This document shows, piece by piece, positions 61,949 through 64,000 of a stretch of 64,000 nucleotides of DNA (positions within the stretch are counted from its first letter, which is position 1; each line of letters opens with the position of its first letter). Origin of the DNA: Micrococcales bacterium (GTDB lineage: Bacteria; Actinomycetota; Actinomycetes; Actinomycetales; Cellulomonadaceae); the NCBI GenBank assembly GCA_009785115.1, contig WQWY01000004.1, forward strand, positions 101,241-165,240. The letters are read 5' to 3'. A program made the position numbers and the translations under genes. Below the pieces are notes generated by a model, which was not told where the DNA came from, did not search any database, and saw only the letters and a list, made by a program, of their open reading frames with translations.

Positions 61949-62020
61949 TCCCCCATAGCTCAATGGCAGAGCATCCGACTGTTAATCGGAGGGTTCCTGG
62001 TTCGAGTCCAGGTGGGGGAG
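61949..62020 (+). tRNA. tRNA-Asn(GUU)
   Basis: TCCCCCATAGCTCAATGGCAGAGCATCCGACTGTTAATCGGAGGGTTCCTGGTTCGAGTCCAGGTGGGGGAG; loop CTGTTAA. Confidence 0.95.
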
Positions 62021-62347
62021 CTAGCGAAAGGCCAGGTCAGATGAGATTTTCTGGCCTGCCCTTCGTTGTGCCTCACCGCACACGGTCGTCTATCGGTCAT
62101 CTACGGACCCTGGTTCGGGCCGGTCAGGACGCACCCACGAGCGCCCACCCCCACTCCTTGGAACGAGTCACCTGGCCACATCAGCCGTCTGTGCTGATGG
62201 GTGGGAAGAGGTCGGCGACGCCTCTACACCGAGGGCGGGGTTACGTCGTCCAGGCTCGACACCGCCGACCATCTCGCCGACACGGGCAGCGGCCAGCGTA
62301 AGAGCCTCGTTGCTGGGGCGACTCACCATGCCAGCGCAACGACAGGC

Positions 62348-62404: not shown

Positions 62405-62671
62405 TCAGGCGTCGCCGACGAGCGCGGCGTACTTGCGGTGGGCGTTCTGCTTGGAGGTGCGCAGGACGAGGCCGATCGCGGCCCAAGAGTCGCCGGCAGC
62501 CCTGGCGGCCCGGATGGTGTCGACGAGCTCGGCCTCTGCCTCGTCGGCGCGCTCGCGTGCGGCGGCCACGGCGCGCAGGTTGGTGCCGTCCCGCATGGCG
62601 GCAGGGTCGATGGTGTCGATGAACGCCTCGGCGTCGGTACGGCGGGTGGTTGCGGTAGCCATGGTCATCAC
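62405..62671 (-). CDS. putative antitoxin (small HTH-like protein)
   Basis: ADEAEAELVDTIRAARAAGDSWAAIGLVLRTSKQNAHRKYAALVGDA; overlaps the upstream gene by 4 nt. Confidence 0.65.
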   Translation of the reverse strand: MMTMATATTRRTDAEAFIDTIDPAAMRDGTNLRAVAAARERADEAEAELVDTIRAARAAGDSWAAIGLVLRTSKQNAHRKYAALVGDA

Positions 62672-62904
62672 CTCAGGTAGTGGTAGCGGGAGGGTTGGAG
62701 GACGTCGGCGTGGATGACGCGGAGCGGGTCGCCAGCGGGGACGAGGACCAGCTCGAGGAACCTTCCGGAGCGGTCGGGGCCGATCCAGAAGAGCCGGGTC
62801 TCGCCGTCGTAGTCCTGCTCGGCGTAGCGGATCGGGTTGTCCAGCGCATGGAGGATGTCGGCGTCCGCGATGCCGTGCTTGCGGGCGCTGCGCCTGATCT
62901 CCAT
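62668..62904 (-). CDS. putative toxin (BrnT/DUF4258-like small protein)
   Basis: MEIRRSARKHGIADADILHALDNPIRYAEQDYDGETRLFWIGPDRSGRFLELVLVPAGDPLRVIHADVLQPSRYHYLR. Confidence 0.65.
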   Translation of the reverse strand: MEIRRSARKHGIADADILHALDNPIRYAEQDYDGETRLFWIGPDRSGRFLELVLVPAGDPLRVIHADVLQPSRYHYLR

Positions 62905-62925: not shown

Positions 62926-63155
62926 TTCAGAGATGTCAACAGAATGATGACGAACACTCGGCCAGGTCGAGCAGGGAGAGCGCGGAGCGGCTCGTCGGCC
63001 TGCAGTTGGTAGGTTGTCGCCCAGAGGGACAGTGCTCACAACTTCCCCGGTGCCGGAATCCCTCTCCGGCCCGGGCGGTGATCTCAGTTCGATCACCGTC
63101 TACAGACACACCCCCGGCCCCGGCCAGGGGAGAGGTCAAGTAGAGGAGAGACGCC

Positions 63156-63239
63156 ATGTTGTCCAAGGAGTTCCGAGCCTTGGCCTACCTCGTAGCATGG
63201 ATGACGGTCGCCGTCATCGCAGTCAACATGTTCGGGTAG
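63156..63239 (+). CDS. 27-aa single-pass membrane micro-protein
   Basis: ATG after RBS (tagaggagag): MLSKEFRALAYLVAWMTVAVIAVNMFG; followed by a strong terminator. Confidence 0.6.
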   Translation: MLSKEFRALAYLVAWMTVAVIAVNMFG

Positions 63240-63244
63240 CACGG

Positions 63245-63300
63245 AGGGCGTGCGCGCGGGTCCAGGTCCATCGCCCGCGCGCACGGCCTCCTTCTCCTTT
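63245..63300 (+). terminator. rho-independent-like terminator downstream of micro-ORF
   Basis: GGAGGGC-GTGCGCGCGGG ... CCCGCGCGCAC-GGCCTCC then TTCTCCTTTCC; 11-bp perfect core arms. Confidence 0.8.
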
Positions 63301-63624
63301 CCTGCAGCGCTGAGCAGTTGTCGTCACGCAGTCGCGCCTACGGCAGCCCTCAGACCGTCCTCAAGAAGAAGGACGTAGCGCTGGGGCACCTCTAGCCGGG
63401 AGTGCCCGAGGACGCTCACCGTCGTCGGCTCTCCGCGCCGATCGACGGTCGTCCAACTCTGCGACTTCCGCTCCTAGAGCGGGCACGGGAGAATGTGAAG
63501 TTTTCGGACACCCCTCACCACTGCCCACGGCCCTGACTTGCACAGGTCGGGCTTGATTTCGGGGTCTCGGTCGTATCTGTGCTGGTCAGGTGCTCAGGAT
63601 CTGGGTGGGTGACACACTAAGCAG

Positions 63625-63883
63625 GTGGTGTTCCTGAGGAAGGTCCGTACGGCCTCGGGTGCGACGGCCGTGCAGATCGCCCGGCGGGAGAACAGGCGCG
63701 ACGTGGTGGTCGAGCATCTGGGTTCGGCACGCACCGACGCCGAGCTGGCAGCGTTGATGCAGGTCGGGCGCCGTAAGCTCCAGATACAGGGTCAAGGTGT
63801 CCTCGATCTTGGCCCAGAGCCGGACCAGGACGGGGCGGTGGTGGTCGGGCAGGTCTCGCGGCTGCTGACCGACATGTGGAGCC
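63625..63883 (+). pseudogene. 5' fragment of IS1634-like transposase gene
   Basis: FLRKVRTASGATAVQIARRENRRDVVVEHLGSARTDAELAALMQVGRRKL resembles the N-terminus of IS1634-family transposases; interrupted at ~63884. Confidence 0.65.
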
Positions 63884-64000
63884 TGACCCGGTTTCCCGGA
63901 CAGTGTTGGTGTGGTGATCATCATGCCGCGTTGGTCGCGGCGGTGTGCAGGTCCTCGAAGTCGTTCGGGGACCGGTAGCCCAGCGCGGAGTGGCGTCGGA
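63884..64000 (-). mobile_element. IS3-family insertion sequence, terminal part (truncated by window end)
   Basis: Terminal-repeat-like TGACCCGGTTTCCCGGACA at 63884; minus frame 63921-63998 ends RRHSALGYRSPNDFEDLHTAATNAA*, an IS3 (rve) transposase C-terminus. Confidence 0.8.

What the first reader, a model, noticed from the sequence alone, without database searches (positions are those of the whole stretch)
63061..63300. Autonomous 27-aa transmembrane micro-protein gene with structured leader and its own terminator
Seen: ATG 63156 with a good RBS (tagaggagag), ORF MLSKEFRALAYLVAWMTVAVIAVNMFG (one TM helix), then an 11-bp-arm terminator with a T-rich tail. The leader has a perfect inverted repeat CGGTGATC-N7-GATCACCG (63076-63098). 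Gene finders skip ORFs this short, and it is absent from the supplied ORF track. It lies between a TA-like module and an IS in a tRNA-proximal variable region. Inference: a discrete small-protein gene, possibly a membrane regulator, type I-like toxin or complex subunit.
Basis: partly seen in the sequence, partly recalled or inferred. Interest (0 to 1): 0.72.

Follow-up and report, generated by a model that had tools for sequence, protein, structure and literature searches.

The report
Orphan 27-residue membrane-peptide gene candidate
A tiny, well-formed reading frame for a 27-residue membrane peptide sits in the scar of a decayed mobile element beside a tRNA gene; it looks like a real small gene, but no relative was found in any collection searched, so its function cannot be inferred and it is a fairly ordinary candidate.

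Summary
ATG 63156 to TAG 63239 encodes MLSKEFRALAYLVAWMTVAVIAVNMFG. It has an AGGAG ribosome-binding site, one hydrophobic segment, strong third-position G+C (0.85 against 0.37 at position 2), and ends 3 nt before an 18-nt-arm hairpin with a broken T-rich tail. This combination is rare by chance: 0-1 per 4 Mb of simulated DNA, one in the window. The leader inverted repeat is not unusual by itself. No homologue appeared in 222 genomes of the family, samples of about 400 each from order, class and phylum, plasmids, phages, viral contigs, or (exact 8-residue seeds) 85,462 genomes; Pfam, NCBIfam, PHROGs and PDB gave nothing. The surroundings are a decayed mobile element at tRNA-Asn: a phage-type BrnT-like toxin with an HTH partner, a tyrosine-integrase remnant, an IS1634-family fragment and a multicopy IS3 that ends the contig. 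The micro-ORF does not travel with the BrnT module. Best reading: a lineage-restricted small membrane-protein gene, moderately likely to be translated, function unassigned. New member of a known kind; low interest.

The parts
63076..63098 (+). Leader perfect inverted repeat CGGTGATC-N7-GATCACCG; a possible leader hairpin or operator
   Evidence: not significant alone (57 similar repeats in the window)
63141..63150 (+). Purine-rich ribosome-binding site tagaggagag (AGGAG, 7 nt before ATG)
   Evidence: Sequence; RBS scan
63156..63239 (+). 27-aa ORF MLSKEFRALAYLVAWMTVAVIAVNMFG, one predicted membrane helix (about residues 8-26)
63243..63291 (+). 18-nt-arm G+C-rich hairpin directly after the stop codon, followed by the T-rich tail 63292-63303; likely intrinsic terminator
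   Evidence: z -3.9; not matched by the narrow scan
62668..62904 (-). Neighbour: BrnT-like toxin (78 aa), divergent from the micro-ORF
   Evidence: Pfam BrnT_toxin E 2e-5, below the curated cut-off; 60% identical to Gordonia phage AlumE gp35, annotated BrnT-like
62405..62671 (-). Neighbour: 88-aa HTH-type DNA-binding protein, likely antitoxin partner
   Evidence: phrog_686 HTH DNA-binding protein E 1.5e-5; BLAST of the module matches phage AlumE genes 35 and 34
63324..63428 (-). Remnant of the C-terminus of a tyrosine integrase (EPTTVSVLGHSRLEVPQRYVLLLEDGLRAAVGATA)
   Evidence: 52-56% identical to the C-termini of longer frames in other genomes, one of which scores as Phage_integrase E 5.9e-20; Pfam and PHROGs do not score the fragment itself significantly
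63640..63782 (+). IS1634-family transposase fragment, cut short by an IS3
   Evidence: 70-75% DNA identity to annotated IS1634 transposases on Rhodococcus plasmids
63878..64000 (-). End of an IS3-family element, present identically on two other contigs; the contig ends here
61949..62021 (+). tRNA-Asn (gtt), probable integration target of the decayed element

Best explanation
A stand-alone small gene in a mobile-element scar. A + strand transcript starting in the 250-bp gap upstream carries an AGGAG site, the 27-codon ORF and a hairpin that ends it (anatomy shown; transcription and termination inferred). The product is a single-helix membrane peptide, probably with the N-terminus (K4, R7) inside and the uncharged C-terminus outside (inferred from the positive-inside rule). 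If it acts, it most likely does so like other bacterial small membrane proteins, by packing against a larger membrane protein and changing its activity or stability (inferred from its kind only); the partner is unknown. It arrived with, or arose in, the tRNA-Asn-linked element and is restricted to this lineage.
For: ORF, RBS, hydrophobicity and position-specific GC. The combination is rare in simulated and same-genus DNA. A strong hairpin begins 3 nt after the stop codon. The mobile context comprises a BrnT-like module of phage/plasmid type, an integrase remnant and IS elements. That intergenic microproteins are mostly hydrophobic and potentially transmembrane is reported for Enterobacteriaceae (PMC11188072).
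Against: No homologue anywhere searched, so no evidence of selection on the frame. No clear promoter. The ORF is a local T-rich, lower-GC patch (56% GC against 70.6% in the window), the composition that yields hydrophobic ORFs by chance. The null criteria were chosen after seeing the ORF. The partner and function are pure inference.
Confidence: 0.5

Rival explanations
1. Chance hydrophobic ORF, or the incidental reading of a non-coding transcript, in decaying mobile-element DNA; the hairpin belongs to the element or terminates some other transcript.
For: No conservation at all; decayed context with an integrase remnant and nested IS; locally T-rich ORF.
Against: ATG, RBS and strong helix together occur 0-1 times per 4 Mb of simulated DNA; the hairpin begins 3 nt after the stop; GC3 is 0.85.
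Confidence: 0.28
2. Leader peptide with an attenuator hairpin that once controlled a downstream gene now lost or replaced by the IS.
For: Short ORF followed at once by a terminator-like hairpin, with a second hairpin in the leader.
Against: No + strand gene follows before the IS: the next feature is an integrase remnant on the opposite strand. No run of one regulatory codon in the ORF, and a strongly hydrophobic helix is not expected of a leader peptide.
Confidence: 0.1
3. Type I-like toxin, a small hydrophobic membrane-damaging peptide carried by a mobile element as an addiction module.
For: Size, single hydrophobic helix, a structured leader that could hold back translation, and a mobile-element setting.
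Against: No promoter-like site for an antisense RNA on the - strand over 63160-63520; a single copy in the genome; no similarity to any toxin family; the element already carries a BrnT-like type II module.
Confidence: 0.07
4. Third component of the adjacent BrnT-like toxin/HTH module.
For: Divergent neighbour about 250 bp away. In one other locus (Mycolicibacterium palauense, L107/L113) an unrelated 44-aa membrane ORF with a good RBS is divergent from brnT.
Against: The 41 loci, plus the Gordonia phage and Rhodococcus plasmid loci, have no similar peptide, including those with 75% and 69% identical BrnT.
Confidence: 0.03

Closest known systems
Bacterial small membrane proteins in general (AcrZ, CydX, KdpF, MgtR class)
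   Same: Fewer than about 50 residues, a single hydrophobic helix, often unannotated
   Different: Those have a known partner protein; this one has no detectable relative and no partner gene nearby
KdpF (PF09604)
   Same: Similar length, single helix
   Different: No Pfam match; the genome's KdpF lies on another contig (C17)
Intergenic microproteins of Enterobacteriaceae (Entero67K set, PMC11188072)
   Same: 15-70 codons, intergenic, hydrophobic, mostly without a Pfam domain
   Different: That set was selected for purifying selection; here no homologue exists to test it, and the genome is a high-GC one
Type I toxins (small hydrophobic peptides repressed by antisense RNA)
   Same: Size and hydrophobicity, mobile setting
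   Different: No antisense RNA signal, no repeat copies, no homology

Membership tests
Small membrane protein (general kind) | ORF of 60-180 nt with a hydrophobic segment of 15-30 residues (Pro-SMP finder, PMC10903887) | tested here: met
   84-nt ORF including the stop, hydrophobic segment about residues 8-26 by Kyte-Doolittle only; Phobius and TMHMM not available
Small membrane protein (general kind) | Conservation in other species (filter of Pro-SMP finder, PMC10903887) | tested here: not met
   No homologue:
Small membrane protein (general kind) | Expression as a protein in the membrane | not testable with these tools
   Needs ribosome profiling, a tag or fractionation
KdpF (PF09604) | Profile match | tested here: not met
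   No Pfam match; the genome's KdpF match is at C17
Type I toxin-antitoxin | Small hydrophobic toxin peptide | tested here: met
Type I toxin-antitoxin | Antisense RNA gene overlapping or next to the toxin mRNA | tested here: inconclusive
   No promoter-like site on the - strand, but such scans are weak in actinobacteria
Type I toxin-antitoxin | Toxicity on expression | not testable with these tools
   Bench test
Leader peptide / attenuator | Regulated gene downstream on the same strand | tested here: not met
   Downstream is an integrase remnant on the - strand, then an IS
BrnT-like module component | Co-occurrence with brnT in relatives | tested here: not met
   No similar ORF at 41 related loci or in the fetched phage and plasmid loci

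The most novel reading that the evidence does not exclude
A recently born or very narrowly distributed membrane micropeptide gene with its own leader and terminator that gives an element in tRNA-Asn a maintenance or host-modulating function of a new peptide family.
Probability: 0.1. Interest if true: 0.4.

Novelty: new member of a known kind. Interest (0 to 1): 0.2.

Why it matters
If translated, it adds one more lineage-restricted small membrane protein of the sort that gene finders miss, in a high-GC genome where such ORFs rarely arise by chance. Without relatives or a partner it opens no general question.

Tried and rejected
Homology by protein (family, order, class, phylum samples; plasmids; phages; viral contigs; genome contigs), by DNA (82 genomes of the genus) and by profile libraries: nothing. 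The weak matches (E 0.1-1) lie in unrelated frames, mostly long ones; the shortest, a 31-aa frame (L045), has no start codon in register. A control search with KdpF (24 positions) found that short peptide family in 21 of 39 relatives, so short membrane peptides are detectable at least by curated profile. Gordonia phage AlumE gp37, a 35-aa ORF beside its brnT homologue, was considered as a counterpart and rejected: a different sequence. Rfam: nothing over the micro-ORF or its leader. That is a single sequence twice, so those scans reach close relatives only. Structure prediction was not run: the peptide is under the tool's 30-residue minimum.

Full report
What is there. The ORF, its RBS, the leader repeat and the downstream hairpin are present as described. 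It begins 3 nt after the stop codon, and its tail is T-rich but interrupted. The leader repeat is unremarkable on its own: 57 perfect 8-nt-arm repeats of that geometry occur in the window.

Is it more than chance. Simulated sequence with the window's dinucleotide make-up gives 0 to 1 ORFs per 4 Mb that combine ATG, an RBS match of at least 5 nt, 20-60 codons and a segment as hydrophobic as this one. The window has exactly one, and 375 kb of same-genus DNA (both strands) has three, of which some may be real small genes. GC by codon position (0.48/0.37/0.85) fits a translated hydrophobic frame in a high-GC genome. The criteria were set after seeing the ORF, so these rates overstate the surprise.

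Relatives. None were found. The peptide was searched in all 222 held genomes of the family, in about 400 genomes each of order, class and phylum, in plasmids and phages, in viral contigs and, with exact 8-residue seeds, in 85,462 genomes. DNA of the locus was searched in 82 genomes of the genus, in plasmids and in phages; outside this genome only short chance-level matches, the neighbouring BrnT module and IS sequences turned up. Pfam, NCBIfam, PHROGs and PDB sequences gave no match. A control with KdpF, a comparably short peptide family, was detected in 21 of 39 relatives; that control used a curated profile, so moderately diverged relatives of a single 27-residue query could still be missed.

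Surroundings. tRNA-Asn lies at 61949-62021. Conservation with the best-matching genus relative stops about 20 bp after it. Then come, on the - strand, an HTH protein and a BrnT-like toxin, whose nearest phage relatives are genes 34 and 35 of Gordonia phage AlumE. After the micro-ORF and its hairpin comes, on the - strand, a 35-residue remnant of a tyrosine integrase C-terminus, then an IS1634-family fragment cut by an IS3 whose end is repeated on two other contigs. The contig stops there. This is most simply the scar of an integrative element at tRNA-Asn; its far end and attachment site are not visible, so that reading is inferred. The micro-ORF is not a fixed partner of the BrnT module: none of 41 related loci carries a similar peptide.

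What it most likely is. A small, lineage-restricted membrane-protein gene with a moderate chance of being translated. Its molecular role can only be guessed from its kind: association with a larger membrane protein. A chance ORF in decaying mobile DNA is the main rival; leader-peptide and type I toxin readings are less likely for the reasons given under the rivals.

Relation to the known. It is like the many unannotated small membrane proteins reported in bacteria (PMC11188072; PMC10903887), but fails the conservation filter that such surveys use. It is filed as a new member of a known kind only in that loose sense, and is not a member of any named family tested.

Noticed in passing
62405-62904: BrnT-like toxin with an HTH-type partner (no BrnA match in Pfam); the module is shared with Gordonia phages AlumE/BoyNamedSue and, in part, Rhodococcus plasmids.
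   Followed up: partly
63324-63428: C-terminal remnant of a tyrosine integrase, opposite strand, between the hairpin and the IS.
   Followed up: partly
63640-64000: Nested IS elements: an IS1634-family fragment interrupted by a multicopy IS3 that ends the contig.
   Followed up: partly
L107/L113, on the - strand upstream of brnT: A 44-aa membrane ORF with a strong RBS (AAGGAGG) divergent from a BrnT homologue in Mycolicibacterium palauense; unrelated in sequence.
   Followed up: no
whole genome G000: The genome is small (2.48 Mb, 99.5% complete) compared with the other well-completed genomes of its genus (3.3-4.9 Mb).
   Followed up: no
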